Part shown: positions 2,261-36,340 of the stretch, piece after piece
Layout of the letters: the number at the start of each line of letters is the position of its first letter
Numbering within the stretch: the first letter of the stretch is position 1
From: Heliocybe sulcata
Lineage: Eukaryota > Basidiomycota > Agaricomycetes > Gloeophyllales > Gloeophyllaceae
DNA: 64,000 nt
Reading direction: 5' to 3'
Assembly (NCBI GenBank): GCA_004369045.1
Contig: ML213546.1
Coordinates: 1 to 64,000, forward strand
Position numbers and translations under genes: made by a program
The notes under the pieces: model-generated
The model's database searches: none
Seen by the model: only the letters and a program-made list of their open reading frames with translations
Told to the model about the DNA's origin: nothing

Positions 2261-5066
2261 ATGATATCGTCCGCGAACGGCATAATCTGCGCCTCGAAGC
2301 TGACACTTCGTCATAGCAGACACCTCGTCAATGTTTCAGTCTGCCAGAACAGGGCGTTGCTATACCACCCATCTACATGCGGTACTGCTGTGCAGAAGCG
2401 GAGGGCGTCCACGGCGAAAGCTCTTGTCTGGCAGGGCAAACATCGTATTCCCAAACACGACATTCCTGCCACCGCCAGGATCCGAGGACACTCAGCCCTG
2501 TCATTGCGTACCCTGAAGCCAGCACGACTAGATGCCGAAGAGTTTGTAAATCTTACTGGGCGAGTATCGAAAACTGTGCATTTTTCAGCTGCGCCTGAAG
2601 AACCCAGGCTTCAAATCTTCTATTTCCGCTCAAGTGTGCATATACAATTTCCTCCTGATTCGCAGGGATTCTTCTACTGGCACTTCAAACCTGATGCGCC
2701 ACCTGTATCAGGGCAGCTTCGATTTCGTACCACGACATCCTCTGACCCGGCTACCTTTCTAAGTGGGCACGACTTGCAGCTTCCAAATGGCCGGACTTGG
2801 AACATTTCGCTCTTACATATTGCCCGCCGGTCAAAGTACTCTGCGCTTCGTACGCATCTCCTTGCAGAGAGGCTCGTAACGGCAAAGGTGCTGGATACCG
2901 CCACGAAAATCTCTCCATCATATCAAGACAAGCATTCTCTTCCCAGGTCATACATTCCTGCTACGACCGCTGCAGGGCTCCGCAATGCCCCAGCCCTGCT
3001 ATTGCGCACCCTGAACCAGGCACGACTCAACGCTGAAGACTTTGCTGATATTGCTGGTCGACTATCGAGATTTGTGCGCTTCCCATTGGCGCCTGCAGAA
3101 CGTAGGTTTGAAATGCGCTATTTCCAACCAGGTTCTCAGAGGATACCATTCCCTCCGGATACCCATGGATTTCTATACTGGTATCTCGAGCCTGGTGCGC
3201 CGCCTGCATCAGGACAGGTCCGCTTTCGCACCACGACATCCTCTGACCCAGCTACCTTTCCAAGTGGGCGGGACTTGCAGCTGCCAGACAGCCGGACTTG
3301 GAACATTTCGCCCTTACGAAGTACCCGCCGATCACAGCACCGTGGGCTTCGTGCCCATCTTCTGGCCGAGAGATTGGTAACAGCAAAGATGCTGGATACT
3401 ATGACGAATATCTCTCCATCATATCAAGACAAGCATTCTCTTCCCAAGTCCAACACTCCTTCTACGACCGCTGTAGGGCTCCGCAATACCACAGCCCTGC
3501 TATTGTGCACCCTGAACCAGACACGACTCAACGCTGAAGACTTTGCCGATCTTAATGGGCGACTATGGAGATATGTGCGCTTCCCATTGGCGCCTGCAGA
3601 ACGTGGGTTTCAAATGCGCTATCTCGAATCAGGTTCTGAGAGGATACCATTCCCTCCGGATTCCCATGGATTCCTATATTGGTCTCTCGTACCTGGTGCG
3701 CCGCCTGCATCAGGACAGGTCCGCTTTCGCATCACAGCATCCTCTGACCCGGCTACCTTTCCAAGTGGGCGGGACTTGGAGCTGCCAAACGGCCGGACAT
3801 GGAATATATCCCTCTTCCGCATTGTCCGCCGGTCACGGTATTCTGGACTTCGTGCACATCTTCTCTCCGAGGGGTTGGTAACAGCAAAGGTGCTGGATAC
3901 TGCCCTGAACGCTTCTGCGTCCTACCAAGGCAAACATGTCATTCCCCAGTCCGACATTCCTGCTACCACCGCTGCAGGGCTCCGCAGAAACTCAGTCGTA
4001 CTATTACGCACTCTGAATCAGACCCGACTAGATGCCGAGGATTTTGTTAATCTTAGTGGGCGAGTGAGGAAAACGGTGCGCTTTCCATTTGCACGTGAAG
4101 AGCCTAGCTTTCAAATGCGCTATTTCTGGTCAGGTCATCGCGATATACCTTTCCCTTCAGATTCTCAAGGATTTTTCTACTGGCATCTCCACCATGATGG
4201 GCCCCCTGTAACAGGGCAAGTCCGCTTTCGCACCACGGCATCCTCTGACCCAGCAAGCTTTCCAACTGGCCGTGATTTGCATCTGCCAGACGGCCGGACG
4301 TGGCATATATCGCTCTTCGATATTGCTCGCCGGACAAAGTATTCTGCGCTTCGTGCACATCTTCTCTCCGAGAAGTTGATAACCGCAGAGGTACTCAATA
4401 CTGCCACGAACATTTCTACCACGGACGGGGCAAGGATAGTCCGTCCGGATGCCCGTAGCCTCTTCATTTGGAAGTTCGGGCAGAGGTTTGTTATTGATCT
4501 TCCAAGTGTCAATATGTCTGTTTGGATTATAGGAGGCTCAGCGGGAGGACGAGTCCTCTTGCCGTCTCTGTTCCCGATCTGCGTTCGCGAATCGGAAAAC
4601 ACCGGGATCTGCTATGTCCTGAGCGAAAGTCCTAACTTGCGCATCTCTCGTCAGACCCGCAAGCATGACTTTTTGAAGGCTGTCAATTACACGTCGTTCA
4701 CAGGTGTGCTGCTACAACTGTTCTTGTCCTGAGATCCTTTACGAGCAAATCCTATAATGTTTAGGGCAAGCTGTGGTTCAGTTCGAACGTTCGACATTAC
4801 CAGAGCACAAGGGTACCCGGACCGTCGTCCTCCGTATCGTCAGAGTCATGCCAAAATTAGACGGCTGTGACGATGCTTACTGGACGCCGGAATCCCAAGA
4901 GGAAGGCTTGGATATGATAGGGATACAAGAGCACTGTTCGTCAGTGGATGTCGACCAGCCTCAGCCTGGGAGTGGATTATTTCCCTCGTCGGCAAAAGCG
5001 CTAAGCATTCTATTCGATAACGAAGCTCTCCAAGAGCGTCGAGCCCACCCGAGCGTTGAGTCATGA
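2261..5066 (+). CDS. Array copy A: modular repeat protein, 4 modules (about 914 aa)
   Basis: Function unknown. Exon 1 is 2261-4703, intron 4704-4764 (61 nt, GTGTGC...TTTAG), exon 2 4765-5066. Frame and phase (1) agree across the junction. Residues 1 to about 75 are basic and poor in acidic residues. Four modules of about 167 residues follow, each with a GF(F/L)YW motif (near residues 137, 304, 471, 638), then P(V/A)(S/T)GQ(V/L)RFR, SSDPATF..GRDL and LRAHLL. The C-terminal domain begins LFIWKFGQRFVIDLPS and contains VRESENTGICYVLSES. Exon 2 adds LPEHKGTRTVVLRI and an acidic tail. Uncharacterised basidiomycete proteins that I recall share the GFLYxH..GELRFR and LPEH..TRTVVLR motifs, usually with a single module; I know no named family. 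Unspliced reading stops at 4732. The start at 2261 (ISSANG) matches the MASVNG start of the other copies. Confidence 0.8.
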
Positions 5067-5289
5067 GCTGGCACGCTCGATCATCTCCGCTCAAGTGCTC
5101 ACATCATGCTGTCGTCGCAGCGAGTAACGGCGGTGACAAGACCCGGTTCAGGTGAACCGTAAATGTACTCTAAATTACTTTTGGGATACCTACAGCTTCG
5201 TCGGTGGAGCCTGCGGGTTTGTAAACTACGCAAGTTGTTATTTTTCCCTGTGATATATTGATCAATCCACACCAGTCTCAAGAAGCATC
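5067..5289 (+). other. Conserved 3' flank of copy A
   Basis: About 220 bp after the stop codon are conserved downstream of most array copies (for example 8837-9060, 13684-13910, 30871-31090). They include GAGCTGGCACGCTCGATCAT and GGTTTGTAAACTACGCAAG. The stretch is probably the 3' UTR and end of the transcription unit. No open reading frame is shared between copies. Confidence 0.45.
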
Positions 5290-6840: not shown

Positions 6841-6843
6841 ATG

Positions 6844-6964
6844 GCGTGACGTCGGCACATGTCGCTTGGCGTCACGCGTCTGTGACAAATTGACCGCACA
6901 AGTTGGTTCAAATCTCGAATTTCGAGGTGACCTGCGCTGGTAGGTTTAATGTCCACTATAATGC
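6844..6964 (+). promoter_or_regulatory. Conserved promoter of array copy B
   Basis: A perfect 8-bp inverted repeat, GCGTGACG at 6844-6851 and CGTCACGC at 6870-6877, is followed by GTGAC and a TATA-like CTATAATG at 6956. It is collinear with the element upstream of copy A. Confidence 0.55.
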
Positions 6965-7004
6965 CACACTCACGAGTTTCATTTCCTGAGAGCAGTTCTC
7001 ATGG

Positions 7005-8836
7005 ATGTTGGCGTCCGTGAACGGCATAATCTGCGCCTCGAAACTGACACTTCGTCGTCGGCGAGACGTTCGCAACAGCAGACACTTCGTCAATATTGTT
7101 TCAGTCTGCCAGAACAGGGTATTGCTATACCCCCCATCTACATACACCACTGCTGTGCCGAAGCGGAGGGCGTCCACGGCAAAAGCGCTTGTCTCCCAAG
7201 GAAAACACCGTATTCCTAACTTGAGGCCCGACATTCCTGCTACCGCCAGGATTCGCGGACGCCCAGCTCTGGTATTGCGTACCCTCAACCCATCGCAACT
7301 CGATGCCGAAGACTTTATCGACCTTACTGGGCGAGTATCGAAAAATGTTCACTTTTCAGCTGCGCCTGAAGAACCCAGGCTTGAAATCCTCTATTTCTTC
7401 TCGAGTGGTCGTGGGTATATACCATTTCCTCCGGATTCCCATGGATTCCTCTACTGGCATCTCGAACCTGATGCGCCACCTGTATCAGGGCAGCTTCGCT
7501 TTCGTACCACGACATCCTCTGGCCCGGCTACCTTTCCAAGCGGGCGTGACTTGCAGCTGCCAGACGGCGGGACTTGGAATATACCACTGTTCCGCATTGC
7601 TCGTAGCAGCAAGTACTCTGGGCTTCGTGCGCATCTTCTCTCCGAGGAGTTCGCTACAGCAAGGGTGCTGGATACCATCGTGAACGATTCAGCCTCCTCT
7701 CAAGACAATCACTTCATTCCCAAGTACGATATTCCTTCTACCGCTGCCGCCGGGCGTGGCAGACCCTTAGGCCTACTATTGCGTACCTTGAATCATACCC
7801 GTCTAGACGTCGATCACTTCGTTGATCTCACTGGGCAAGGGACGAAGTCTGTGCGCTTTCCAATGGCGCCTGAAGAACCTGCGTTTGTCATACGCTATTC
7901 CCAGTCAGGTGGTCGTACTGCACCATTCCCCGCAGATGCTCATGGATTCCTTTACTGGCATCTTGAGCCTGATGCGCCGCCTGTATCAGGACAGGTCCGC
8001 TTTCGCACCACGGCATCCTCTGATCCGGCTACCTTTCCAACTGGCCGCGATTTGCATCTGCCAGACGGCCGGACGTGGCATATATCGCTCTTCGACATTG
8101 TGCGCCGGTCACAGTACTCTGGGCTTCGTGCATATATTCTCTCTGACAACTTGGTATCTGCAAAGGTGATGAATACTGCCATAAATATTTCCGTCCGTAA
8201 TGGGGCAGCGACAAGCCATCCAGTGACCGGTAGCCTCCTCATTTGGAAGTTCGGACAAAGATTTCTTGTGGAGTTTCCAAGCGTCTGTGTGTCCTTTTGG
8301 CTTGTGGGAACCTCAGCGGCAAAACGAGTTCGCTTGCCTCCCCTGTTCTCAGTTTTGGTCCGGGAATCGGAAAGCACCGGGATCTGCTATGTCCTGAGCG
8401 AAAGTCCTGACTTGCGCATCTCTCGCGAAATCGACAAGCATGACTTCTTGAAGGGAGTCGATTACACGTCGTTCTCAGGTGCGTTGTTACAATTGTTCTT
8501 CTCCTGAGATGCTTACGAGCAGCTGTATAATCTTCAGGGCGTGCTCTGGTTCAGTTCGAACGCTCGACACTACCAGAGCACAAGGGCACCCGAACCGTCG
8601 TTCTCCGTATCCTCAAAGTCATGCTAAAATCAGATGGCTGTGACGATGCGTACTGGACGCCGGAATCCCAAGAGGAGGCCTTGGACATGACAGGGATACA
8701 CCAGCACGCTTGGTCATTGAACGTCGACCAGGCTCGTCAGAGCGGAAAACCTTACTCGTGGGCGAAAGCGCTAAGCATTCTATTTGATAATGAAGCTCTC
8801 CAAGAGCGTCGAGCCCACCCGAGAGTTAAGTCATGA
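7005..8836 (+). CDS. Array copy B: modular repeat protein, 2 modules (about 590 aa)
   Basis: Shortest type of array gene along with E and G. Exon 1 is 7005-8478, intron 8479-8537 (59 nt, GTGCGT...CTTCAG), exon 2 8538-8836; phase 1 is kept. The N-terminus MLASVNGIICASKLTLRRR is followed by an arginine- and serine-rich stretch. The two modules each have GFLYWHLEPDAPP. The C-terminal domain begins SLLIWKFGQRFLVEFPS. Exon 2 supplies a FERSTLPEHKGTRTVVLRI-type segment and the tail DDAYWTPESQEE...FDNEALQERRAH. The first ATG after the conserved promoter was chosen as the start. Without splicing the protein would end SGALLQLFFS at 8507. Both exons are undamaged. Role unknown; membership of the family is certain, the splice model well supported. 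Confidence 0.8.
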
Positions 8837-10695: not shown

Positions 10696-10697
10696 TC

Positions 10698-10855: not shown

Positions 10856-13683
10856 ATGTTGGCGTCCGTGAACGGTATAATCTGCGCTTCAAAGCTGACA
10901 CTTCGTCGTTGGCGAGACGTTCGCAACAGCAGTCACCTCGGTTATGTTTCAGCTTGTCAGAACAGGTTATCGCCCTATCTTCCATCTATATACAATATGC
11001 AGAAGCGGCGGGCGTTTTTACCGAAAGCGCTTGTTCGCCGAGGCAAACGTCGTATTCCAAAGTCCGATATTCCTGCTCCCGCGCCCACCCGGCTCCGCAG
11101 GCCCCTAGCGCTACCAGTGCGTACCCTGAATCATACACGACTAAATGTGCAAGACTTTGTTGATCTTTCCGGGCGAGTATCGAAAAATGTGCAGTTTTCA
11201 TTGGTGCCTGCAAAAGCTAGGCTTCAAATGCACTATGCCTACTCAGCCCATGGGAATCCACCATTCCCTCGGGATACTCGGGGATTCTTCTACTGGCATC
11301 TCGATCATGATGCACCGCCTGTAACAGGGCAGGTCCGCTTTCGCACCACAGCATCCTCCGATCCAGCTACCTTTCCAACTGGGCGCGACTTGCAGCTGCC
11401 AAACGGCCGGACTTGGAATATATCCCTCTCCCGCATTGCTCGCGGGTCAGTGTTCTCTGGCCTTCGTGCACATCTTCTGTCTGAAGAGTTGGTTACGGCA
11501 GAGGTGCTGAATACTGCTCTGAGTACTTCCGCCTCCTATCGAGACAAACATCATATTGTAAAGTCCGACGTTCTTGCTCCAGCTAACGACGGGCTCCGTA
11601 GACGCTCAGCCCTGCTATTGCGCACCCTGAACAAAACACGACTAGATGCCGAAGACTTTGTTAATCTTACTGGGCATCAGACGAAAGCTGTGCGTTCTCC
11701 ATTGGCACCTGAAGGACTTGCGCTTGTCATGCAATATATCCGCCCGGATGGTCGTAGTAAGCGTATACCATTCCCGCCGGGCTCTCATGGATTCCTTTAC
11801 TGGCATCTTGAACCTGATGCGCCACCTGTATCAGGCGAGGTCCGATTTCGCACCACGATATCCTCTGACCCGGCTACTTTCCCGAGTGGGCGCGACCTGC
11901 AGCTGCCAGACGGCCGGACATGGAGTATGTCGGTCCTCGGCATCGCCCGCCGGTCACAGTACTCTGGACTTCGTGCGCATCTTCTCTCCGAAGAATTGGT
12001 CACAGCAAGGATGCTGGATACTGCCGCGAACAATTTAACCCCTTACAAAGACCATCATCGTATTCCCAAGTCCGACATCCCTGCTACCTCGAAAACCGGG
12101 GCTCGCAGACGCTCAGCCCTGCTATTGCGTACCCTGAACCAGACACGACTAAATGCGGAAGATTTTGTTGATCTTACTGGGCGAGTATCGAAGGATGTGC
12201 ATTTTCCATTGGTGCCTGCAAAAGCTAGGCTTATAATACACTATGCCTACTCAGCCCATGGGAATCCACCGTTCCCTCCGGATTGTCATGGATTCCTGTA
12301 CTGGAATATCGATCCTGATGGGCCGCCTGTAACAGGGCAAGTCCGCTTTCGTACCACAACATCCTCTGACCCGGCTACCTTTTCAAGTGGGTGCGACTTG
12401 CATCTGCCAGATGGCCGGACATGGAATATATCGCTCTTCCGCATTGCCCGCGTGTCACAGTATTCTGGGCTTCGTGCACATCTTCTCTCCGAGGGGTTGG
12501 TAACAGCAAAGGTGCTGGATACTGCCCTGAACGCTTCTGCGTCCTACCAAGGCAAACATGGCATTCCCCAGTCCGACATTCCTGCTACCACCGCTGCAGG
12601 GCTCCGCAGAAACTCAGTCGTACTATTACGCACTCTGAATCAGACCCGACTAGATGCCGAGGATTTTGTTAATCTTAGTGGGCGAGTGAGGAAACCGGTG
12701 CGCTTTCCATTTGCACGTGAAGAGCCTAGCTTTCAAATGCGCTATTTCTGGTCAGGTCATCGCGATATACCATTCCCTTCAGATTCTCAAGGATTTTTCT
12801 ACTGGCATCTCCACCGTGATGGGCCCCCTATAACAGGACAGGTCCGCTTTCGCATCACGACATCTTCAGACCCGGCTACCTTTCCAAGTGGACGGGACTT
12901 ACAGCTGCCAAATGGCCGGACTTGGCATATATCGCTCTTCGACATTGCGCGCCGGTCACAGTACTCTGGGCTTCGTGCACATCTTCTCTCCGAGAAGGTC
13001 GTAACGAAGAATGTGCTGGATACGGCCATGAACGTTTCTGCACGGAACGGGACAGCGATAGCCCATCCAGTGACCGGTAGCCTCCTCATTTGGAAGTTCG
13101 GACAGAGATTTCTTGTGGAGTTTCCAAGCATCTGTGTGTCCCTTTGGCTTTTGGGAACCTCGGTGGCAGAACGGGTTCGCTTGCCTGCCCTGTTCTCAGT
13201 CTTGGTCCGGGAATCGGAAAGCACCGCGATCTGCTATGTCCTAAGTCAAAGTTCTGACTTGCGCGACTCTCCCGAGACCGGCAAGGATGACTTTTTAAAG
13301 ATAGTGGATTGCACACCATTTTCAGGTACGTTTCTACAACTGTTCTTCTCTTGGGATGCTTACGAGCAGCCGTATAATCTTCAGGGCGTGCTCTGGTTCA
13401 GTTCGAACGCTCAACACTACCCGAGCACAAGGGCACCCGAACCGTCGTGTTCCGTATCATCAAAGTCATGCCAACATCAGACGGCTGTGACGATGCGTAC
13501 TGGACGCCGGAATCCCAAGAGGATGGCTTCGACATGACAGGGATACACCAGCACGCTTGGTCAGTAAACGTCGACCAGCCTCCTCGGAGGGGATTACTTA
13601 GCTCGTCGGCGAAAGCATTAAGCATTCTATTTGATAACGAGGCTCTCCAAGAGCGTCGAGCCCACCCGAGAGTTAAGTCCTGA
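10856..13683 (+). CDS. Array copy C: modular repeat protein, 4 modules (about 922 aa)
   Basis: Exon 1 is 10856-13325, intron 13326-13384 (59 nt, GTACGT...CTTCAG, the best donor in the family), exon 2 13385-13683. In this copy the in-frame TGA that normally lies inside the intron is TGG, so unspliced reading continues to 13537 but in a frame unrelated to exon 2 of the other copies. This supports the intron. The four modules carry TRGFFYWHLDHD, SHGFLYWHLEPD, CHGFLYWNIDPD and SQGFFYWHLHRD. The last module (12491-12842) is nearly identical to the fourth of copy A. The C-terminal domain begins SLLIWKFGQRFLVEFPS. I start at 10856 (MLASVNG), not at upstream in-frame starts that lie within the conserved promoter. 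Function unknown. Confidence 0.8.
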
Positions 13684-15520: not shown

Positions 15521-15525
15521 TCATC

Positions 15526-15686: not shown

Positions 15687-18600
15687 ATGGCGTCCGTGAA
15701 CGGCATAATCTGCGCTTCAAAGCTGACGCTTCGTCACTGGCGAGACGTTCACAGCAGACACTTCGTCAGTATTGTTTCAGTCTGCCGGAATAGGGTATCG
15801 CCATGTCTCACATCTGCATACAATACTGCTGCGCGGAAGCGAAGGGCGTCCACGGCGAAAGCACTTGTCTCGCAAGGCAAACATCGTATTCCCAAACACG
15901 ACATTCTTGCCACTGCCAGGATCCGAGGAAGCTCAGCCCTGCCATTGCGTACCCTGAAACCGGCACGACTAGATGCCGAGGACTTTGTCGACCTTACTGG
16001 GCGAGTATCGCAAAATGTGTATTTTTCAGCTGCGCCTGAAGAACCCAAGCTTCAAATCTTCTATATCTACTCAAATGTGCATACACCGTTTCCTCCGGAT
16101 TGTCAGGGATTTTTTTACTGGCATCCCGACACTCATGCCCCCCCTGTATCCGGGCAGGTCCGCTTCCGCACCACGACATCCTCGGACCCGGCTACCTTTC
16201 CAAGCGGGCGCGACCTGCAGCTGCCAGACGGCCGAACCTGGAATATATCGCTCCTCTGCATTGCCCGCCAGACAATGTATTCCGGGCTTCGTATACATCT
16301 TCTCTCCGAGAAGCTGGTAACAGCAAAGGTGCTGGATACTGCCCTGAACATGTCTGCCTCCTGTCAAGGCAAATATCATATCAGCAAGTCTAACATTCCT
16401 GTTACCGCCGTCACCAGGCCTCGCAAAGGTGTAGCCCTGCTATTGCGTACTCTTAACCAGACAAGACTAGATGCCCAAGACTATGTTGATCTTACTGGGC
16501 AACAGAAGAAAGCTGTGCGCTTTCCACTGGCATTTGAAGCATCCATGCTTCAAGTGTACTATGGTCGCCCAGATGCTCGTCGGAATCTGTCATTCCCTAC
16601 GGATTCCAAGGGATTCTTCTACTGGCATCTCGAACCTGATGGGCCGCCTGGTTCAGGACAGGTCCGTTTTCGCACCACAGCATCCTCTGACCCAGGTACC
16701 TTTTCAAGTGGGCACGACTTGCAGCAGCCGGACGGCAGTACCTGGAATATACCACTCTTCCGCATTGCTCGCCAGATGAAGTACTCTGGGCTTCGTGCAC
16801 ATCTTCTCTCCGAGAAGCTGGTAACAGAGATGGTGCTAGATGCTAATCTGAACATGTCTGCCTCCTATCGGGACAAACATTCTTTTCCCAAGTCCGGCGT
16901 TCCTGCTACCACCGCTACAGGGCTGCGCAAAGGCACAGCCCTGCTATTGCGCACACTGAACCAGACACGACTCAACGCTGAAGACTTTGCTGATCTTACT
17001 GGTCGATCATCGAGATATGTGCGCTTCCCATTGGCGCCTACAGAACGCGGGGTTGACATGCGCTATTTCCAATCAGGTTGTAAGAGGATACCATTCCCAC
17101 CGGATTCTCATGGATTCCTATACTGGTATCTTGAACCTGGTGCACCGCCTGCATCAGGGCAGGTCCGCTTTCGCACCACCAGATCCACCGACCCGGATAC
17201 CTTTCGAAGTGGGCGCGATTTGCCTCTGCCAGATGGCCGGACTTGGAACATTTCGCCCTTACGAAGTACCCGCCGGTCACAGCACCGTGGGCTTCGTGCG
17301 CATCTTCTGGCCGAAAGATTGGTAACAGCAAAGATGCTGGATACTGTGACGAATATCTCTCCATCATATCAAGACAAGCATCCTCTTCCCAAGTCCAACA
17401 CTCCTTCTACGACCGCTGTAGGGCTCCGCAATACCCCAGCCCTGCTATTGCGCACCCTGAACCGAACACGACTTAACGCTCAAGCCTTTGCTGATCTTAC
17501 TGGGCGAATATCGAGATATGTGCGCTTCCCATTGGCGCCTGCAGAACGTGGGTTTGAAATGCGCTACTTTCAATCAGGTTGTAAAAGGATACCATTCCCT
17601 CCGGATTCTCATGGATTCCTCTACTGGCATGTCGAACTTGATGCGCTGCCTGTATCCGGACAGGTACGCTTTCGTACTACGAGATCCTCTGACCCGGCCA
17701 CATTTCCAAGTGGGCGCGACTTGCAGCTGCCAGACGGCCTGACTTGGAGTATATCGCTCCTCCGCATTGCCCGCCAGACACAGTATTCTGGACTTCGTGC
17801 ACATCTTCTGTACGAGGAGTTGGTAACAGAAAAGGTGCTGGCTACCGTCGCCAACACTTCACCCTCCCTTCATGACAATCAGCGTATTCCCAAGTCCGAC
17901 ATTCATGCTATTTCGACCGCCAAGGTTACCAGACACTCAGCCCTTCGATTGTGCACCCTGAACCAGGCACGACTAGATGCCGATGACTTTGTCGATCTTA
18001 CTGGGCAACGGATAAAGGACGTGCGCTTTCCATTGGCATCTGAAGCACCTAGGCTTCAAATATACTATTTCCGCTCAGCTTCTCGTAATTATATACCATT
18101 TCCTCGGGATTCTCAGGGATTCTTCTACTGGCATCTCGACCGTGATGCGCCGCCTGTATCAGGGCAGGTACGCTTTCGCACCACGACATCCTCAGACCCG
18201 GCTACCTTTCCAAGCGGACGGGACTTACAGCTGCCAAATAGCCGGACTTGGCATATATCGCTCTTCGACATTGCGCGCCGGTCACAGTACTCTGGGCTTC
18301 GTGCATATCTTCTCTCGGAGAAGCTTATAACGAAGAATGTGCTGAATACTGCCCTGAACATCTCTGTCCGGCAGGGGGCAGGGATCGTGCATCCAGCCAC
18401 CGGGAGCATTCTCATCTGGAAGTTCGGACAGAGATTTCTGGTGGACCTCCCGAGCTTCTACGTGTCGGTTTGGATTGTAGGAAGCTCAGCGGGAGAACGG
18501 CTTCTCTTGCCGTCTCTGTTCCCGATCTGGGTCCGCGAATCGGAAAGCACCGGGATGTGCTATGTCCTAAGCGGAGGGCAGCGCTCTGACTGGCGCATCT

Positions 18601-19018
18601 CTCCCGAGACGGGCGATGTCGATGACTTGTTGAAGGGAGTCGATTACACGCCGCTCACAGGTGTGTTGCTGCAGGTGATTTACCCCTGAGATACTTACGA
18701 GGCGCCCTATAATCTTCAGGGCAAGCTCTGGTTCAGTTCGAACGCTCGACACTACCAGAGCACCACGGCACCCGAACCGTCGTTCTCCGTATCCTGAAAG
18801 TCATGAAAAAATCAGAGAGCTCTGACGACGAGTCCTGGATGCCGGAACAGGAAGAGGATGGCTTGGATATGACAGGAATACACCAGCACGCTTGGTCATT
18901 GAACGTCGACCAGCCTCCTAGGAGGGCATCACTTGGCTCGTCCTGGAGAGCGTTACGCATTCTGTTCGATAACGAAGCCCTCCATCAGCGCTCAGGATCG
19001 AGCCCACTCGAGAGCTAA
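15687..19018 (+). CDS. Array copy D: modular repeat protein, 5 modules (about 1090 aa)
   Basis: Longest array member seen whole. Exon 1 is 15687-18660, intron 18661-18719 (59 nt, GTGTGT...CTTCAG), exon 2 18720-19018, phase 1. The start MASVNGIICASK at 15687 follows the promoter. Module motifs are GFFYWHPDTH, GFFYWHLEPD, GFLYWYLEPG, GFLYWHVELD and GFFYWHLDRD. The boundary between modules 3 and 4 (17246-17565) is almost identical to 3301-3620 in copy A. The C-terminal domain begins SILIWKFGQRFLVDLPS. Exon 2 ends with a slightly different tail (DESWMPEQEEDGLDM). Exons are free of damage. The number of modules is the main difference between family members, which suggests unequal crossing-over between modules (inference). 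Function unknown. Confidence 0.8.
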
Positions 19019-21369: not shown

Positions 21370-23189
21370 ATGATGGCATCCGTGAACGGCATAATCTGCG
21401 CCTCGAATCTGACGCTTCGTCATTGGCGAGATGTTCGCAATAGCAGGCACCTCGGTTATGTTCCAGGCTGTCAGAACAGGTTATCGCCATATCTTTCATC
21501 TACAAAGAATATGCAGAAGTGGTGGGCGTTCGCGCCAAAAGAGCTCGTTCGCCGAGGCAAACATCGTATTCCAATGTCCGATATTCCTGCTCCCGCCCCC
21601 ACCGTGCTCCGCAAACGCTCGGCCCTGCACTTGCGTACCCTGGACCCGACACGACTACACAGCGAGGACATTGCTGATATTGCGGGGCGAGTATCGAGAA
21701 CTGTGCACTTTCCAGTGGCACCTGAAGAACCTACGCTTGAAATGCACTATTTCTACTCAGGTAGTAGGAATATACCGTTCCCTCCGGATTCTCAGGGATT
21801 TTTCTATTGGCATATTGACCCTGATGCGCCGCCTGCATCAGGGCAGCTCCGCTTTCGTACCGCGTCCTCTGATTCCGCTACCTTTTCAAGTGGGTGCGAC
21901 TTGCAGCTGCCAGACGGCCGAATTTGGAATATACCGCTCTTCCGCATTGCTCGCGCGACAAAATACTCTGGGCTTCGTGCACATCTTCTCTGCGAGGAGC
22001 TGGTAACAGCAAGACTGCTGGATACTGCCATGAAGAATTCTGCGCCCTCTCAACGTGAACATCGTATTCCCGAGTCTGACATTCCCGCTACCGCCGCTGC
22101 CGGGCCGCGCAGACGCTCACCCCTGCTATTGCGTACCCTGGACCGTACCCGACTAGATGTCTACGACTTTGTTGATATTACTGGTAAAATGACGAGAAAT
22201 GCGCGCTTTCCAGTGGCCCCTGAAGAACCTAGGCTTCAACTGCGCTATTTCAAGTCAGGTGGTCGTAACAATATACCCTTTCCTCCGAATACGCGAGGAT
22301 TCTTCTACTGGCATCTCGAACCTGATGCGCCGCCTCTAGCAGGGCAGCTCCGCTTTCGCACCACGACATCCTCCGACCCGGATACCTTTCCAACTGGGCG
22401 CGACTTGCAGCTGCCAGACGGCCGGATTTGGTGTATATCCCTCTTCGACATTGCTCGCATATCGCAGTACTCCGGACTCCGTGTCCATCTTGTCTCCGAG
22501 GAGTTGGTAACCGCAGAGGTGCTGGATACTGGCCTCCACGTTTCTGCCTCGTCCGGTGCAAGGATATGCCACCCGTCTACCGAGAGCCTTCTCATTTGGA
22601 AGTTCGGACAGAGATTTCTTGTGGATCTTCCAAGCGCCTGTATGGCATGTTGGATTATAGGAAGTTCAGCGGCAGGACGGCTTCGCTTGCCACCCCTGTC
22701 CTCGGTCTGTGTCCGCGAATCGGAAAGCACCGGGATGTGTTATGTCATGAGCGAAAGCCCTGGCTCACGCATCTCTCCCCAGACTGGCACGCATGACTTC
22801 TTGAAGGGTGTCGATCGCAGACCTTTCACAGGTGTGTTGCTGCAACGGTTCTTCTCCTGAGATATTTAGAAGGAGCTGTATAACGTTCAGGGCAAGCTCT
22901 AGTTCAACTCGAACGCTCGACACTACCAGAGCACAAGGGCACCAGGACGGTTGTCCTCCGTATCCTCAAAGTCATGACAAAATCAGACGGTTGTTACGAC
23001 GCGTCCTGGACGCCGGAATCGCAGGAGAATGGCTTGGACATGACAGGGATACACCAGCACGCTTGGTCAGTGAACGTCGATCGGCCTCCTCGGAAGGGAT
23101 CACTTGGCTCGTTGGCGAAAGCGCTAAGCATTCTATTTGATAACGAAGCTCTCCAAGGGCGTCAAGACCGCCAAAGAGCCAAGCTATGA
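21370..23189 (+). CDS. Array copy E: modular repeat protein, 2 modules (about 586 aa)
   Basis: Exon 1 is 21370-22831, intron 22832-22890 (59 nt, GTGTGT...GTTCAG), exon 2 22891-23189; phases agree. The N-terminus is MMASVNGIICASNLTLRHW with further Arg, Ser and Tyr and almost no acidic residues for about 70 positions. Two modules carry SQGFFYWHIDPDAPP and TRGFFYWHLEPDAPP. The C-terminal domain reads SLLIWKFGQRFLVDLPSA and VRESESTGMCYVMSES. Exon 2 contains VQLERSTLPEHKGTRTVVLR and a tail ending QERQDRQRAKL-like. It is separated from copy D by 2 kb of decayed duplicated sequence and from copy F by 5 kb that includes the intact NTA1-like gene. Function unknown. Confidence 0.8.
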
Positions 23190-23674: not shown

Positions 23675-24938
23675 CTATGGACTCCACACTTGCACGTCCT
23701 CGTCTTTACGGCCCATGACGTGTAATAATTTCGGTCGTCCTACGGATCTGTTCATGCTGAACATCGCTGATGACCCGGCGAACGTGACACCTACATTGAT
23801 CAATCAGCACCAGCATCAACAATGGAGCATTCAACGGCTAGTGCACTTACCGTTCTCCTCGCCGCATCGATTACACACCACAACCAGCACTTCCTTTCCA
23901 TCTCCCTGGCCCTCCTTTCTCGCCCACAGTGGCCTGAGCCGCGCTGCCCAGTACTGAACGACCTGCCAGTCCTCGCTCGTGCCATCATTGTCGTCTGCCG
24001 AACTCGATGCCAACCAGGCATTCAAGAGAACGACCGTATCAGAGTCAGTCATGACTGCGTGATCCGCAACCTCGTAAGGACCTTCCTCAAGACTCCAGGT
24101 GGCAGGTTGGATAGGATTAAGGTCCATGCAGATGCCGAGAGTGAGCGTGCCGAGAGGAGGCGGGAGGTAGAAGGTCGCTAATCCTGTCCCTGAAAGAGGT
24201 TTTAGCGGTGTCAAGCCACATAAGCGACACATGAATCGATGTACCTGGTTTGGCCCATGTCATATCTGTTTTGAATAGGTTTGTCTTGCGATAACCACCT
24301 ACCCACTTCCCGTCCGGACCGTACAATACAGCACTGTTCGCGCCCACTCTATCTATCCGCGTATCTTTCATTTCTTCTAGCTCCTCTTCATCGTCCCCAA
24401 GCTCAGGGACGGACTCTACTTGTATCGTGACGCCTCTCTCGACCTCATCCGGACGAAGACGTTCCGGGTATCCAGCAAGGACGTGACAATGAAGATGCGA
24501 AGCGAGCTCCGAGCAGAAGATAGAGGTTGGCCCGGTCTTGGGTTCCTCGAGATACGGCAATATCGAAGTGGCGTCCGGGAAGACGTATCCTAGTAGCCAC
24601 AACGAAGTGATCGTAAGAAATTGTTTCGCCGTCACGGGGGAGTTCTCTCACCGGTGAATATCATTTCCGGGAAGCATACTAGGTCCACTGAGCGAGGTTT
24701 TAGTCTACTCCATGATAATGTCACGACTTCAGCGCTCAGCCATAAAGACATGGCGCGTTCGGACGCACTTGGCGCAGAGTCGTCGTGCTTTCTGGATGTT
24801 ATGTTCAACATCTCCGAACTAGCTGTTCCATCAATAAATTTGTCGCGGAGAGCGCTCATAGCGACGGGTATGCGAGCAGCGAACCTTTGGAGAGAACTGA
24901 ACAGCAGCTACTCGCAATGGAGGATGTTGCGACGACAT
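23675..24938 (-). CDS. NTA1: Protein N-terminal amidase (Nta1-like, carbon-nitrogen hydrolase), 6 exons, about 318 aa
   Basis: Exons 24938-24885, 24818-24769, 24704-24652, 24589-24245, 24189-23851 and 23790-23675; introns of 66, 64, 62, 55 and 60 nt all have GT-AG ends and keep frame. The protein begins MSSQHPPLRVAAVQFSPK and has the nitrilase-superfamily Glu-Lys-Cys triad: Glu in VDLVCFPEMIFTG, Lys in VGGYRKTNLF, Cys in TLTLGICMDLNP. Other family signatures are GANSAVLYGPDGKW and NGVTFAGSSAMFSM near the C-terminus. In yeast, Nta1 deamidates N-terminal Asn and Gln, converting them to destabilising residues in the Arg/N-degron pathway. The gene looks intact and full length, unlike the two broken copies at 20.7-20.9 and 27.7-28.0 kb. 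It is probably the parental copy around which the array expanded (inference). Confidence 0.88.
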
Positions 24939-28500: not shown

Positions 28501-28531
28501 AGTTTAATTCTCTGAGAGCAGTCTTCATAAC

Positions 28532-30870
28532 ATGATGGCGTCCGTGAACGGCATAATCTGCGCTTCGAAGCTCGCGCTTCGTCATTGGCGAGACGTTCGC
28601 AACAGCAGGCACCTCGTAGATGTTTCAGGCTCAGTCTTCCAAAACTGGACATTGCCCTATATTCTATTTACAAACAAAGTGCAGAAGCGGTGGGCATTCG
28701 TGCCGAGAGCGCTCGTCCACCGAGGCAAACATCGTGTTCCAAAGTCCGATATTCCTGCTCCCGCCCCCACCCGGGTCCGCAGGCCCCCAGCTCTGCCAGT
28801 GCGTACCCTGGATCGGACACGACTGGATGTCAAAGACTTCGTTGACTTTTCAGGGCGAATTTGGAGACATGTGCGCTTTCCATTGGCGCCTGCAGAACGT
28901 AGGCTTCTAATGCACTATGTCTACTCAGATGGTTGGAAAATACCGTTCCCTCCGAATTCGCATGGATTCCTCTACTGGCATCTTGAACCCGATGCACCGC
29001 CTGTATCAGCCCAGGTTCGCTTTCGTACGACGATATCCTCTGACCCGGATACCTTTCCCAGTGGGCGCGACTTGCAGCTGCCAAATGGCAGGACTTGGAA
29101 CATATCGCTCTTCCGCATTGCTCGCCGGTCACAGTACTCTGGACTTCGTGCACATCTTCTGTCCGAGGAGTTAGTAACGGAAAGGCTTCTGGGTATTGCC
29201 GCGAACGCTTCTGCCCCCTCTCGACGCAAACGTCGTAATGCCAATTACGGCATTCCCGCTACCGCAGCCACCGAGCTCTGCGGACCCTCAGCCATGCTAT
29301 TGCGTACCCTGAACCCGACACGACTGGCCGCAGAAGACTTCGTCGATCTCACCGGGCGATTAATGAAAACTGTGCATTTTCCAGTCGGGTCTGAAGCACC
29401 TAGCTATAGGCTGCAAATGCAATATATCCGCTCAGGTGGTCATGGCTATATACCATATCCTCCGGAGTCTCGGGGATTTTTCTACTGGCACCTCGACCAG
29501 GATGCACCGCCTGTAACAGGGCAGGTCCGCTTTCGCATCACGACATCCTCTGACCCGGCTACCTTTCCAAGTGGCCGGGATTTGCGACTGCCAGATGGGG
29601 ACATCTGGAATATATCGCTCCTCCGCATTGCTCGCTACACGAGGTACTCTGGGCTTCGTGCACATCTTTTCTCTGAGGAGTTGGTTGCAGCAAATGTGCT
29701 GGATACTGCCCCGAACATTTCTGCTTCCTATCAAGCTCACCCACTGATTCCCGAGTCCGACATCCCTGCTACCACCGCTACCGAGCTGCGAAGACGCTCA
29801 GCCCTGTCATTGCGCACCCTGGACCAGACACGCCTAAATGTTGAAGACTTCATCGACCTTTCTGGGCGGTCACAGAGCACTATTCGATTTCCGGTGGTAC
29901 CTGAACAACCTAGCTTTCGAATGCGGTACTTCTACACAGGTGGTCGTGATATACCATTCCCTCCTGATTGTCACGGATTCTTTTACTGGCATCTTGAGTC
30001 CGATGCGCCCCCTGTTTCTGGGCAGATTCGCTTTCGCGCCACCACGTCCTCTGACCCGGCTACCTTTCCAACCGGGCATGACTTGCAGCTGCCAAACTGC
30101 CGGGTGTGGCACATATCGCTCTTTGAGATCGCTCGCGCGTTAAAGTACTCTGGTCTTCGTGCACAGCTTCTCTCCGAAAGGTTAGTAACAGCAATGGTGC
30201 TGGATACTGCCTTGAAATTTTCAGCCTCTTACAGGGCAAGACTACTCCGTCCAACCACCGGTAGCCTCCTCATTTGGAAGTTCGGACAGAGATTTCTTGT
30301 GGATCTCCCGAGCTTTGAGGTGCCACTTTGGGTTATAGGAAACTCAGCGCCAGAGCGGCTTCTCTTGCCGCCCCTGTCCTCGGTCTGGGTCCACGAATCG
30401 GACAGCAGCGGGTTCTGCTATGTCCTGAGCGAAAGTTCTGACTTGCGGGCCTCTGCCCAGGCCGGCAACCGTGACTTGGTGAAGGGAGTCGATTACGCGC
30501 CATTCACAGGTGTGTCGCTACAACTGTTCCTCTCCTGAGCTACTCACGAGCAGCACTATAATCTTCAGGGCGAGCTCTGGTTCAGTTCGAACGCTCGACA
30601 CTACCCGAGCACAAGGGCACCCGAACCGTCGTCCTCCGTATCGTCAAAGTTATCCCAAAATCAGACGGCTGTGACGACGCGTCCTGGACGCCGGAATCGC
30701 AGGAAGATGGCCTGGACATCACCGGGATACACCAGCACGCTTGGTCATTGAACGTCGACCAGCCTCTGCCTGGGAGTCAATCACTTGGCCCGTCTGCGAA
30801 AGCACTACGCCTTCTATTCGACAACGAGGCTCACCAACAGCATCGAGCCCATCCGAGAGCTCAAATATGA
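28532..30870 (+). CDS. Array copy F: modular repeat protein, 3 modules (about 759 aa)
   Basis: Exon 1 is 28532-30509, intron 30510-30568 (59 nt, GTGTGT...CTTCAG), exon 2 30569-30870, phase 1. The start MMASVNG at 28532 sits 40 bp after the TATA-like box. Three modules carry SHGFLYWHLEPD, SRGFFYWHLDQD and CHGFFYWHLESD. The C-terminal domain is SLLIWKFGQRFLVDLPS with VHESDSSGFCYVLSES. Exon 2 reads LPEHKGTRTVVLRIVKVIP, then DASWTPESQEDGLDITGI, and ends HRAHPRAQI. It contains no internal Met near its beginning, so simple ORF calling misses it here. Both exons are undamaged. It lies between the second NTA1 fragment and block X copy 3. Function unknown. Confidence 0.8.
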
Positions 30871-32035: not shown

Positions 32036-32479
32036 TTGTTCGAGATATGTCCTAATTAAGAATATGCATCAGCACTCTTCCTAACATCTACTACCCAAAC
32101 GTACAGGCAACTGGGCGGTGGTGCCGAAGAGGAGCAACAGGCGAAATCCCGCAAGCACGTCCTCAAGCGATGGACGCGGTTGATCCAAGGCTTGAGGCCT
32201 TGAGATAGGCTGCAGCGGCAGTACAGCGATGTTGGCCAAGCCGCCTCAATTGGTAAGCGAGAGGATGAAGGGAACGAGACCGAGAACGGTGAGCAAGAAG
32301 GAGAAGGGGTTCGTCTAGTATTTTTCTTTGTGGTTACGACACTTATATCCTCGTTCTCTCAGTGCAGGAAGCCGTCGTTGAGCCCGGAGGGTATCTCACC
32401 GCTGTCGATAATATCGTTAGGCCTTTTGTATTGCCCAGATATCAGCATGTTGCATTCCAATCTGCAGGTCCACCAAGGC
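32036..32479. other. Unassigned spacer
   Basis: Sequence between block X copy 3 and block Y copy 4. No recognisable gene or repeat beyond short purine-rich text at 32260-32310. Confidence 0.3.
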
Positions 32480-33612
32480 GCTCATCGCCTGGCACATGAA
32501 GATACAGAAGAACCGTCGGCGTCCGACCGTCCGACGCCATTGACTATGGAAACTATTACCAAAGAGCATGACTGAACTTTCAGAAGCTTCTGTGAGGCAG
32601 ACAGATACTAGCACCATGCATGTCGACATCGCAGCTTAAGTAGGGTCGTCACTGTCTGCCACAACTTCTGCTGCGCAAAGACACTCAGCTTGGTCCCCGA
32701 AAAACTACCCGCTGCGACGAGCAGTCATAACGCGGCTGCTGCCAGTGGACGTGCGAAACGTACGTAAGAAGATCTTTCAGACTCTGGAGATCAGACAGTC
32801 GAGAGCGCCGGCGAGTCCCCCCCCCTCCCCTGTCAAGAGCAGAAAGGATAAGAAGATTATTCATGTGGTATCAGCAACGTGTATAGATGCGACACGGTGT
32901 TGCGGACTCGCAAGGCCAAGCTGAGCATGGAATTGCACGAGGAGAGCGAGAGGGAGCGGGCATATCGAAGAGGCATCGCAGAATCAGCTCTTGCCTTTCA
33001 CATGTCATCTGCGTACGATGGGCACTACGGGAGGAGATCAACGAATTTCCTGCCATCGACGAAGCTGCACATGTGCGTGTAATCGATCTCGACTGGCAGG
33101 GTTGAAGCAGAGACAGTGCCTCAAGGTCCTGCATTCTGTACGGGATGTTTGTGCGCACATGCATGACAGCAGAATGCAGAGGAGACAAAGGTAAATGTCG
33201 GAAGCTTAGCCTCAGCAGACGCAGGAGAGGTGGGTAGGCCGGTTTTGTTTGACTCCCTGGACGTATGCGGGTCACTATGGGATGGCGAAGCATTGATGTA
33301 GAGCGGAGACAAAATAATGAGACCGTTGGAATCATGCATATGGGATGCTGCGGAGGGGCGACGATGAAAGCAGAACGAAGTCCACCCAAGTAAAAGGACG
33401 TACTAGCCGTTATTGGTTTTTCCTCTTCTCTTCTCTGCGGGTGTTGCAGCGTTGTCTATAGGCTGATATGGCTTCCTTCTCGACGCATACACGGAGTATG
33501 TACCTCCTTTGTCGGCAGTTGCGTCAGCGAGATCATCGAGCCAGTCGTTGAATGATAGGCAGAGAGGAATGCATTTGATGGATAGCGATGTCGACAGTGA
33601 GCGTGAACGTTC
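32480..33612 (+). repeat. Block Y, copy 4 (orphan, truncated)
   Basis: Diverged block Y with the stretches also found at 5640-6650: CGACATCGCAGCTTAAGTAG (32625), PVDVRNVRKKIFQTLE (about 32750), VLRTRKAKLSMELHEESERE (about 32898) and the MASFSR(H/R)-like start near 33468. In other copies an array promoter follows. Here the match stops near 33612, just before a transposon, so the usual promoter is missing. Confidence 0.5.
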
Positions 33613-33655
33613 ACCGGCGATCTATCACGATCAGTGAAGGAAATGAAGAAACATT

Positions 33656-34475
33656 CACTTCCAGTAACCGAATATATGACTGCCCTGTAAATGTGGCCCA
33701 ATATCGGGAAGTCACGGTTGAAATATCCGTGCAATTGGATACATGATTATCTATTTGATATATCACATATCGTTAAAATGAGAACATATATCTACAATTT
33801 GTGTGATTCTATGACTTGCAAGGCATATTTGTTATTCACGTGCAAAGGTTAAGGTGAATGGTGATCTCATATTTGGCCGAAGCTACGGTAGAAAGTAAGA
33901 ATTTTGAATATTAGCTTCTCACGTAGTTCTGTCTGTATTACATACATAGTAAAACATATCCATATACAGTGGAAGTTTGTTGGGCATTTCAAATTTTCTG
34001 CTTCAAAATGATGATGGCTAATATTTCTTCCAGCACCAGTGGGACAAATGTCAAAACGAAACCGGGGACCAACATTTGTCATGGCGATATATTCCATATA
34101 TGGGTTCCCATTCGGGTCTGTTGGGGTATCCTGAAGTAAATTTGAAATTCCACACATCAAGCATATCTCGGAAGATATACCAGATATGGGCGATAATCCC
34201 AGTGCAATGAAATATTCGAAATTGTTGTCGATCAAAAACCTCAATAAAAATAAGAATTATACTTATAACTACACATCGGACAATATTTATAATTTACTTC
34301 AACATATTCCAACATAGTGTAGCTTCGTATGTATTTCATGTATATAAATTCCTATACACAATATAACATATATAAAAAATAACCTGCCATTTCCGGTGAA
34401 TATTATATATCAAAGCCCACATCTCAATTTAGGTCGGCATTTACAGCGATCACGTATATTCGGTTCCCTCCGGTG
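33656..34475. mobile_element. Non-autonomous CACTA-like DNA element, copy 1
   Basis: AT-rich, 820 bp, flanked by ATT on both sides (33653-33655 and 34476-34478), a 3-bp target duplication. The ends CACTTCCAGTAACCGAATATA and, on the reverse strand, CACCGGAGGGAACCGAATATA form imperfect terminal inverted repeats with an 11-bp perfect core. A near-identical copy stands at 58136-58954 with GCG on both sides. CAC-starting ends and 3-bp duplications are typical of the CACTA (CMC/EnSpm) superfamily. There is no transposase; a 125-codon minus-strand ORF at 33867-34244 is not conserved as protein in the second copy. It lies between orphan block Y and array copy G. Confidence 0.7.
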
Positions 34476-34495
34476 ATTCGATGGGTAATCTGTTA

Positions 34496-34531
34496 GTGAC
34501 GTCGATGTCACACGCTGTAACGTTATATATA
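34496..34531 (+). promoter_or_regulatory. Candidate replacement promoter of copy G
   Basis: TGACGTCGATGTCA (34497-34510) is a CRE-like near-palindrome, and TATATATA begins at about 34524, about 45 bp before the ATG. Overall the stretch is not alignable with the promoters of copies A-F, so it appears to be a different sequence that happens to contain similar elements. Confidence 0.35.
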
Positions 34532-34568
34532 GCATCAAAGTCTCAGATCTTAGATCTTACGTCTCATT

Positions 34569-36340
34569 ATGAATGGCATAATCAGCGCCTCGAAGCTGCC
34601 GCTTCGTCACTGGCGAGACGTCTGGATCAGCAAGCATGCTGTCTATGTTCCAGGCCGGCAGGAGAAATCATCATCCTACCTTCCATCTACATGCAATAGC
34701 CCTGTACAAAAGCGGTGGGCATCCCCGCGGAAAGCTCTCGATAAAAGTCGTATCCCCCAGGTCGACATGCCTGCTACCACCGCTGCCGCCAGGCGCCGCG
34801 GAGGCCCCGCGCTGCTATTGCGTACTCTGAATCAAAACCAACTAGACAGCGAAGACTTCCTTGATCTTACCGGTCAAATATCGAGATCCGTGCGCTTTCC
34901 AGTTGCACCTGAAGAACCTGGGCTTGACATACGGTATTTCCGGTCAGGTGGTCGTCATATACCATTCCCTTCTGATTCTCAGGGATTCTTCTACTGGCAT
35001 CTCGACCCCGATACACTCCCTGCACCAGGGCAGGTCCGCTTTCGCACCACCACATCGTCTGACCCGGCTACCTTTCCATGTGGGCGCGATTTGCAGCTGC
35101 CAAACGGCCCGACTTGGAATATACCGTTGTTTCGCATTGCTCGAGGGTCGAAGTACTCGAGGCTCCGTGCGCATCTTCTCGCTGAGACGTTAGTCACGGC
35201 GGAGATGCTGGATATTGTGCTGAACAGTTCTGCCTCCTCTCAAGACAAATCTCGTATTCCCAAGTCCGACATTTCTGCTCCCGCGGCCACCGGGCTCCGC
35301 AAATGCTCACTCTTGACATTGCGTACTCTGAATCAGACGCGAATAGATGCCGAAGACATTGCCGATATTGCTGGGCGAGCATCGGTATCAGTGCATTTTC
35401 CATTGGTGCCTGCAGAATGTAGGCTTCGGATGCACTATTCCCGTTCAGGTGGTGGTAGATATATACCATTCCCTCCAGATTCTCACGGATTCCTCTACTG
35501 GCATCTCGACCCTGACGCGCCGCCCGTATCAGGGCAGGTCCGGTTTCGCAACTCAGCACCCTCCGACCCAGCTACCTTTCCAAGTGGGCGCGACTTGCAG
35601 CTGCCAGACGGCCGAATCTGGAATATATCACTCTTCGACATTGCTCGCGTGTCAAAGTACTCTGGTCTTCGTGCACATCTTCTCTCCGAGAATGTTGTAA
35701 CGAAGGATATGCTGGATACTGCCTTGAATATTTCTGTTCGGCTCGCGGGAAGGAGAATCCATCCAGGCACCGGTAGCCTTCTCATTTGGAAGTTCGGACA
35801 AAGATTTCTTGTGGACCTTCCAAGCTCCCGTGCGTCGCTCTGGGTTATAGGAAGTTCAGCGGGAGAATGGCTTCTCTTGCCGCCCCTGTCCTTGATTCTG
35901 GTCCGCGAATCGGAAAGCGACGAGATGTGTTATGTCCTGAGCGATACTTCTGACTTGCGTATCTCTCGCCAAACTGGCAAGCGTGACGTCTTGAAGGGAG
36001 TCGATTACACGCCGCTCACAGGTGTGTCGCCACAAATGTTCTTCTCCTGGGATGCTTAAGAGCAGCTCTATAATCTTCAGGGCGAGCTCTGGTCCAGTTC
36101 GGACGATCGACACTACCGGAGCACAAGGGCAACCGGACCGTCGTTCTCCATATCCTCAAAGTCATGACCAAATCAGACGGCTCTGACGACGCTTTCTGGC
36201 TGCCAGAACCACAGGAAGATGACTTGGATATGGCAGGGATACATCACCACGTTTGGTCAGTGAACGTCGACGAGCCTCCCCGGAGGGGCTCATCGTCGAG
36301 AGCGCTAAGAATTCTATTCGACAACGAAGCTCTCCAATAG
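34569..36340 (+). CDS. Array copy G: modular repeat protein, 2 modules (about 570 aa)
   Basis: Exon 1 is 34569-36021, intron 36022-36080 (59 nt, GTGTGT...CTTCAG), exon 2 36081-36340. Homology to the other copies begins exactly at the first codons, MNGIISASK; the MASV residues and the whole conserved promoter are absent, and a transposon lies 94 bp upstream. The two modules carry SQGFFYWHLDPD and SHGFLYWHLDPD. The C-terminal domain begins SLLIWKFGQRFLVDLPS. The intronic stop is TGG, as in copy C. Exon 2 ends early at TAG (36338-36340) after FDNEALQ, about ten residues short of the others. The frame is otherwise open. Whether it is transcribed is uncertain because its promoter was replaced. Confidence 0.7.

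What the first reader, a model, noticed from the sequence alone, without database searches (positions are those of the whole stretch)
2261..36340. Expanded array of module-shuffling proteins of unknown function
Seven same-strand paralogues plus an inverted eighth (62.1-64.0 kb) encode proteins with 2, 2, 2, 3, 4, 4, 5 and at least 3 copies of a ~167-residue module between a fixed N-terminus and a fixed C-terminal domain. All frames are open while the DNA between them decays. Variable repeat number, clustering and homogenisation resemble rapidly diversifying recognition or conflict genes (inference). The core motifs GFLYW, GQVRFR, SSDPATF and LPEHKGTRTVVLR recall an unnamed domain I have seen in other Agaricomycete proteins, usually once per protein.
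Basis: partly seen in the sequence, partly recalled or inferred. Interest (0 to 1): 0.8.

Follow-up and report, generated by a model that had tools for sequence, protein, structure and literature searches.

The report
Fast-evolving modular fungal protein array
A fungus carries an unnamed gene family, probably sent to its mitochondria, whose members differ mainly in how many copies of one building block they hold and in a short variable patch on each block, as might be expected of recognition proteins in an evolutionary arms race.

Summary
Seven same-strand genes plus one inverted gene carry 4, 2, 4, 5, 2, 3, 2 and 3 copies of a ~167-residue module, all open. Added here: (1) every window gene has one 59-61-nt 3' intron, so the fixed C-terminal domain spans two exons; LPEHKGTRTVVLR lies in exon 2. 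(2) The fixed N-terminus looks like a mitochondrial presequence (basic, acid-poor, KRWAS-like motif). (3) The genome has at least 58 terminal exons of this family; 28 of 48 gene groups have one module, 20 have two to six. (4) Extra modules form one clade (52 of 95, support 1.0); the ancestral-type module stays last in 11 of 18 genes. (5) Copies have exchanged segments. (6) Each module has a ~30-residue variable segment (pN/pS 0.94 versus 0.41 in the rest), partly alternating like a surface strand. No Pfam, NCBIfam, PDB-sequence or fold match stood up. Best reading: imported modular binding proteins under birth-and-death evolution, working like (but unrelated to) plant restorer-of-fertility PPR proteins. 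Localisation is inferred; target and conflict role are untested; positive selection is not proven; strains and other species could not be compared.

The parts
2261..5066 (+). Gene W1, 4 modules; exon 1 2261-4703, intron 4704-4764, exon 2 4765-5066 (914 aa)
7005..8836 (+). Gene W2, 2 modules; intron 8479-8537 (590 aa)
10856..13683 (+). Gene W3, 4 modules; intron 13326-13384 (922 aa)
15687..19018 (+). Gene W4, 5 modules; intron 18661-18719 (1090 aa)
21370..23189 (+). Gene W5, 2 modules; intron 22832-22890 (586 aa)
28532..30870 (+). Gene W6, 3 modules; intron 30510-30568 (759 aa)
34569..36340 (+). Gene W7, 2 modules; intron 36022-36080 (570 aa)
62088..64000 (-). Gene W8 (start lies beyond the window), 3 modules; intron 62396-62454, exon 2 62088-62395
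2261..2461 (+). Presequence-like N-terminus of W1; the like stretch starts each of the eight genes
3854..4213 (+). Stretch shared at 355/360 identity with 12476-12835 of W3, crossing a module boundary (read as a conversion tract)
12476..12835 (+). Partner of the W1 stretch
2097..2111 (+). Promoter-region element GTGACRTCRGCACAT; the other five in the window start at 6846, 10700, 15528, 21207 and 28373, each 159-170 nt upstream of the N-terminal profile match

Best explanation
This is a family of nuclear-encoded proteins, most likely imported into mitochondria, built as presequence - n copies of one ~167-residue module - fixed two-exon C-terminal domain. Shown: the architecture, the copy number in the genome, clustering, module amplification and exchange of segments. 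Inferred with fair support: mitochondrial import, from the N-terminus. Inferred with weaker support: each module has a conserved core that holds a variable surface segment; changing the number and mixture of modules changes what the protein binds, while the C-terminal domain is a constant effector or assembly part. The most likely role is recognition of changing mitochondrial targets (transcripts or products of selfish mitochondrial elements, mitoviruses or plasmids, or incompatible mitochondrial haplotypes). The modules are basic on average (net charge +3.3, 78 of 95 positive), which fits but does not show nucleic-acid binding. I put mitochondrial localisation at about 0.75, variable-face recognition at about 0.45, and a mito-nuclear conflict role at about 0.25.
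For: N-terminus: 44 rows (43 genes, one counted twice) have on average 1.9 acidic and 10.5 K/R residues in the first 60, against 5.8 acidic per 60 in 285 module stretches; a basic cleavage-like motif (KRWAS and variants) is hit in 43 of 44 by a pattern written after seeing the sequences, 2 of the 43 first at another place; QKRRAS recurs in a distant C19 paralogue. The genome's Hsp60 of mitochondrial type starts with a similar basic, acid-free stretch and two Hsp70 starts of cytosolic type do not. Variable segment: pN/pS 0.94 (bootstrap 0.79-1.15) against 0.41 (0.37-0.45), 33 tree cherries, Fisher p 1.6e-18; partial alternation along one strand with Tyr 42 in 95 of 95; its length varies (35-46 residues in 88 modules) where the core spacing is 44 in 83 of 86. 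Amplification: 52 extra modules form one clade, support 1.0. Exchange.
Against: No localisation experiment or dedicated predictor was available. Helix amphipathicity is only modestly above shuffles (median percentile 0.90, 24 of 44 at 0.9 or more). pN/pS in the variable segment is not significantly above 1, and the inter-module linker (codons 141-150) is equally loose at 1.06, so relaxed constraint would fit; dN/dS exceeds 1 in 0 of 300 window pairs and 1 of 4465 family pairs. No fold or family links the module to any binding protein. The two-module model failed (pLDDT 55.5).
Confidence: 0.45

Rival explanations
1. A mitochondrial housekeeping or stress family that expanded under relaxed constraint: module number and the variable segment are loosely constrained features without a recognition role.
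For: pN/pS of the variable segment is about 1, as for unconstrained sequence, and so is that of the linker; two distant members lack 12 alignment columns there; 28 of 48 gene groups have one module only.
Against: The segment keeps an invariant Tyr (95 of 95) and some low-pN sites, so it is not unconstrained; all eight window copies are intact; internal duplication of the module arose at least twice (the C30 101-kb and 151-kb genes lie outside the main multi-module clade).
Confidence: 0.25
2. A cytosolic or nuclear fungal immune or allorecognition repertoire, comparable to repeat-bearing NLRs such as HNWD, with an uncharacterised effector as the C-terminal domain.
For: Variable module number, segment exchange and a variable patch in each module resemble the HNWD family, where two pairs of codons of each WD repeat are under positive selection (PMC2873952, passages).
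Against: No NACHT, WD40, ankyrin, TPR or known effector domain at E 1 or below in the eight window proteins as given to the scan, which were exon-1 frames, nor in exon 2 of W2. Modules are 55-67% identical to a reference module. The basic N-terminus suggests import.
Confidence: 0.2
3. Genes carried by a transposable element, spread by transposition rather than by host duplication.
For: Copies on eight contigs, with dispersed repeats nearby.
Against: Conserved intron, tandem orientation, and no transposase-type domain in the 18 window frames scanned. No stretch of 90% or more identity is shared between the flanks of array genes.
Confidence: 0.05

Closest known systems
Plant restorer-of-fertility-like (RFL) PPR proteins
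   Same: Nuclear genes in clusters of similar copies, tandem modules, fast-evolving sites at fixed places of each module, species-specific paralogues (PMC5138203, passages); mitochondrial import is recalled for that family and inferred here.
   Different: No PPR motif found; module is ~167 residues, not about 35 (the latter recalled); a constant C-terminal domain; no target known.
Fungal HNWD / het-e, het-d NLR genes
   Same: Tandem repeats of unstable number and a few variable sites per repeat (PMC2873952, passages).
   Different: No NACHT or WD40 domain found; repeats far more divergent (near-identity of the HNWD repeats is recalled); basic presequence-like start.
Pfam DUF7515 (PF24359), a sub-threshold match in two of eight proteins
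   Same: Weak alignment to 54-58 residues (E 0.004 and 0.008).
   Different: 16.8 and 17.7 bits against a cut-off of 27; in 25 single modules it is seen once, at E 0.074. CheZ (E 0.0013, one protein) and LGFP (E 0.009 and 0.085, two proteins) are equally below cut-off. All taken as chance.

Membership tests
PPR / restorer-of-fertility-like | PPR motifs | tested here: not met
   No PPR family among Pfam matches of the eight exon-1 frames or of 25 single modules
PPR / restorer-of-fertility-like | mitochondrial targeting peptide | tested here: inconclusive
   Composition and cleavage-like motif fit; no predictor or experiment
PPR / restorer-of-fertility-like | diversifying selection at fixed module positions | tested here: inconclusive
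   Variable segment pN/pS 0.94 (0.79-1.15); 11 sites chosen after the fact 1.18 (0.96-1.40)
Fungal NLR (HNWD type) | NACHT or NB-ARC domain | tested here: not met
   No Pfam match in the eight exon-1 frames
Fungal NLR (HNWD type) | WD40, ankyrin or TPR repeats | tested here: not met
   No Pfam match
Any family with a solved structure | sequence or fold similarity to a PDB chain | tested here: not met
   Single protein best E 0.4; profiles best E 1.8 and 1.7; Foldseek best E 1.5; all taken as chance
   Met inside this genome only: 28 single-module gene groups, and six distant members with one module and the C-terminal domain; other species not testable

The most novel reading that the evidence does not exclude
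Fungi have their own, independently evolved counterpart of plant restorer-of-fertility genes: an unnamed mitochondrially imported module, amplified and shuffled in nuclear gene clusters, that recognises and silences changing selfish mitochondrial elements or incompatible mitochondria.
Probability: 0.2. Interest if true: 0.9.

Novelty: new variant of a known kind. Interest (0 to 1): 0.55.

Why it matters
How nuclear genomes of fungi police mitochondrial parasites is little known. A family with an import signal, countable modules and a defined variable patch would give a concrete set of genes to tag, delete and test. Even without that role, an unnamed domain with at least 58 terminal exons in one genome and no Pfam or NCBIfam entry found is a real annotation gap.

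Tried and rejected
C-terminal domain as a diverged module: suggested by eye, not supported by profile-profile alignment, which matched 13 linker columns only. Adjacency of C44 and C7 through a shared 128-nt end: withdrawn, the stretch is a dispersed repeat with nine other matches. Subtelomeric array: C30 and C4 begin with telomere-like repeats, but neither end of C44 nor the start of C7 does, and the start of C14 reads N, so it is not claimed for the window. Fold identification: single-module model usable (pLDDT 83.7, pTM 0.78, though the five models range from 83.7 to 45.1), no PDB or viral match; two-module model poor. Relatives in viral and prokaryote contigs: none confirmed. Seven literature searches: four aimed at the family and three at analogies; none of the listings described it; listings and abstract beginnings only, except passages read in PMC2873952 and PMC5138203. 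CheZ, LGFP, DUF7515 and the other sub-threshold Pfam matches were taken as chance, as were the sub-threshold NCBIfam matches. A codon-model fit printed a likelihood but no omega and is not used. Hsp controls: seven short stretches were fetched; three gave a readable start of known type and are used, four (L051, L053, L055, L057) are not.
Full report
What is there. The window is the first 64 kb of a 77-kb contig (C44) of a 31.6-Mb genome in 51 contigs. Eight genes carry tandem modules of about 167 residues: W1 4, W2 2, W3 4, W4 5, W5 2, W6 3, W7 2 on the plus strand and W8 3 on the minus strand. In the plus-strand genes the period is 501-510 nt, and 300-nt register copies are 60-91% identical in the 20 repeat families shown of 51. 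Aligned as proteins, the other 24 modules are 55-67% identical to the reference module.

Gene model. Aligning the 3' regions of the eight genes shows a conserved 59-61 nt intron (donor GTGYGT or close, mostly a TTACGAG-like stretch, acceptor YAG) after the codons for DYTPFTG, followed by an exon of about 100 codons with LPEHKGTRTVVLRI. In the genome 48 rows (47 genes, W8 seen twice) gave such a splice model, with introns of 54-63 nt, and 4 rows (3 genes) did not. The exon is open in all eight window genes. Six of the seven same-strand genes share GTGACRTCRGCACAT 159-170 nt upstream of the N-terminal profile match; these are the only six matches in the window; in the family 10 of 43 rows (one gene counted twice) have it. 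A TATA-like box 54-58 nt upstream of the same point is present in the same six genes, and in 12 of the 43 rows somewhere in 420 nt.

Family in the genome. A search with the exon-2 protein gave 61 rows. After merging two split exons I count 58 terminal exons and one fragment, on C44 (8), C30 (21), C7 (13), C6 (8), C19 (4), C4 (2), C14 (1) and C27 (1) (my count from that table, a lower bound by the tool's own note; some are in broken copies). Grouping the 95 full-length modules (contigs C44, C30, C7, C6, C4, C14, C27; C19 and two outlying C6 members not included) gives 48 gene groups: 28 with one module, 20 with two to six. Six distant members on C19 (4) and C6 (2) have the same order, module then C-terminal domain, at 35-41% identity to a window module. 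A C6 cluster repeats the whole module plus C-terminal unit, apparently without a stop between units, so three of the C6 'single' groups may be one gene. Some copies look broken: split or partial modules at C30 145 kb, C30 193 kb, C7 196 kb, C7 3-5 kb and C4 94 kb.

How the arrays grew. In a FastTree tree of the 95 modules, read with a midpoint root, the 52 extra modules form one clade (support 1.0), and all 64 modules of the multi-module lineage, which include the single module of a C14 gene, group together (support 0.84). In 11 of the 18 multi-module genes of this lineage the last module belongs to a basal set that also holds the C14 module; that set did not come out as a clade of its own. 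I read this as one ancestral-type module staying next to the C-terminal domain while derived modules were added on its N-terminal side; in 7 of 18 the last module has been replaced or homogenised. Two C30 genes (101 and 151 kb) have a module duplication outside this lineage. Segments have been exchanged: windowed pair distances among 24 window modules vary more than in any of 300 column permutations, also after centring each window (16.1 against 10.4, s.d. 0.7), although uneven rates along the module can add to this; W1 3854-4213 and W3 12476-12835 match at 355/360 with flanks at 288/360 and 276/360; and W8 is 89% identical over 1746 columns to a two-module gene on C30 at 203-205 kb.

N-terminus. 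Across 44 rows (43 genes) the first 60 residues hold on average 1.9 D/E (maximum 4) and 10.5 K/R (minimum 8); 285 60-residue module stretches hold 5.8 D/E. A motif of the form KRWAS sits at about residue 45-60 in most of them; my pattern, written after seeing the sequences, hits 43 of 44, in 2 of these first at another place, and the one miss reads QQRCVS. Distant members carry QKRRAS, KRTIS or RRCIS at the like place. The maximum hydrophobic moment has a median percentile of 0.90 against shuffles, 24 of 44 at 0.9 or above, which is modest. As a small control, an Hsp60 of mitochondrial type in this genome (my assignment from a Pfam chaperonin match) begins with a basic stretch without acidic residues up to its mature start, while two Hsp70 starts of cytosolic type have none of this; one positive and two negatives is few. 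That such motifs mark cleavage by the mitochondrial processing peptidase is recalled knowledge, not a call.

Selection. Modules of C44 have median dS 0.57, dN 0.27 and dN/dS 0.46, 0 of 300 pairs above 1; over the whole family 1 of 4465 pairs is above 1. By part the pooled pN/pS of window genes is 0.53 for the N-terminus (7 genes), 0.66 for the C-terminal part of exon 1 and 0.45 for exon 2 (8 genes each). Within the module, all-pairs counts in C44 modules pointed to codons 21-50. On 33 tree cherries from the whole family, 21 of them without any C44 module, this stretch has pN/pS 0.94 (0.79-1.15) and the rest of codons 1-140 has 0.41 (0.37-0.45); Fisher p 1.6e-18. Against a special role, the inter-module linker, codons 141-150, is as loose (1.06). 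Counts are not corrected for conversion or multiple hits. Along its second strand, codons 37, 39, 41 and 43 together have pN near the global pS (1.04) and codons 38, 40 and 42 have 0.35, with Tyr 42 invariant in 95 of 95; the alternation is imperfect, since codons 38 and 41 are alike (0.73 and 0.72). Eleven hot sites chosen after the fact give 1.18 (0.96-1.40). The segment also varies in length (35-46 residues from the Gly motif to GFFYW in 88 modules) where the spacing from GFFYW to the next Trp is 44 in 83 of 86. I read this as a variable surface on a fixed core, without proof of positive selection.

Structure and families. The single-module model from 25 window modules has pLDDT 83.7 and pTM 0.78, two strands in the variable segment and a core of two strands, a short helix, a short strand and three helices. 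The spread of the five models (83.7 to 45.1) asks for caution. In the two-module model (16 rows, pLDDT 55.5) only the core recurs, at moderate confidence. Foldseek found nothing at E 0.001 in the PDB (best 1.5) or in viral models (best 0.53). One protein and profiles of 25 and of 11 modules found no convincing PDB sequence (best E 0.4, 1.8 and 1.7). Pfam gave nothing over its cut-offs for the eight window frames (exon 1; the W3 frame also reads on past its splice site), for 25 modules, for six distant members, or for one exon 2 and one C-terminal piece of W2; NCBIfam likewise for two proteins. The viral and prokaryote collections gave no confirmed relative.

What it most likely does. The parts suggest an imported protein whose variable modules bind something and whose constant C-terminal domain does one common job. 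The closest working analogy is the plant restorer-of-fertility-like PPR set: clusters of similar genes, fast sites at fixed module positions that touch the target, species-specific paralogues (PMC5138203, passages only). Fungal HNWD genes are the second analogy (PMC2873952, passages only). Membership in both is not met by domain content. Targets in fungal mitochondria that change quickly include plasmids, homing introns and mitoviruses (recalled); one listed abstract says that control of mitochondrial homing elements is largely unknown (PMC6048814, beginning of abstract in listing). This last step is inference.

Limits. Seven searches of the paper library, four of them aimed at the family, listed no description of it, which is weak evidence of absence because a sequence family is hard to search by words.

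Noticed in passing
window 59734-61900: Foldback-type element: 1020-nt arms, 99% complementary, 127-nt loop. The same inverted arrangement with a 127-129 nt loop recurs on C37, C13, C28, C42, C27 and C23 at 67-94% identity, so the loop length is conserved across a dispersed family.
   Followed up: partly
window 1-128: Contig start is a dispersed ~129-nt repeat with nine further matches at 98-100% identity on C7, C29, C6, C4 and C17, two of them over positions 35-129 only.
   Followed up: partly
window 33656-34475 and 58136-58954: 820-nt direct repeat at 93% identity, perhaps a transposable element, one copy just upstream of W7.
   Followed up: no
window 49229-50779: Open frame with a DM9 repeat (E 5e-12), a domain I recall from animal lectins and did not expect here.
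   Followed up: no
window 46763-47236; 56459-57082; 24120-24635: Pieces of ordinary genes: IBR half-RING, mitochondrial carrier, carbon-nitrogen hydrolase.
   Followed up: no
L034 (C6 450-456 kb): A second mode of growth: the whole module plus C-terminal unit, intron included, is repeated, apparently without a stop between units.
   Followed up: partly
L036 (C30 start), L039 (C4 start): Both contigs begin with telomere-like CCTAAC repeats; family clusters on them lie about 55-213 kb and 90-97 kb from that end.
   Followed up: partly
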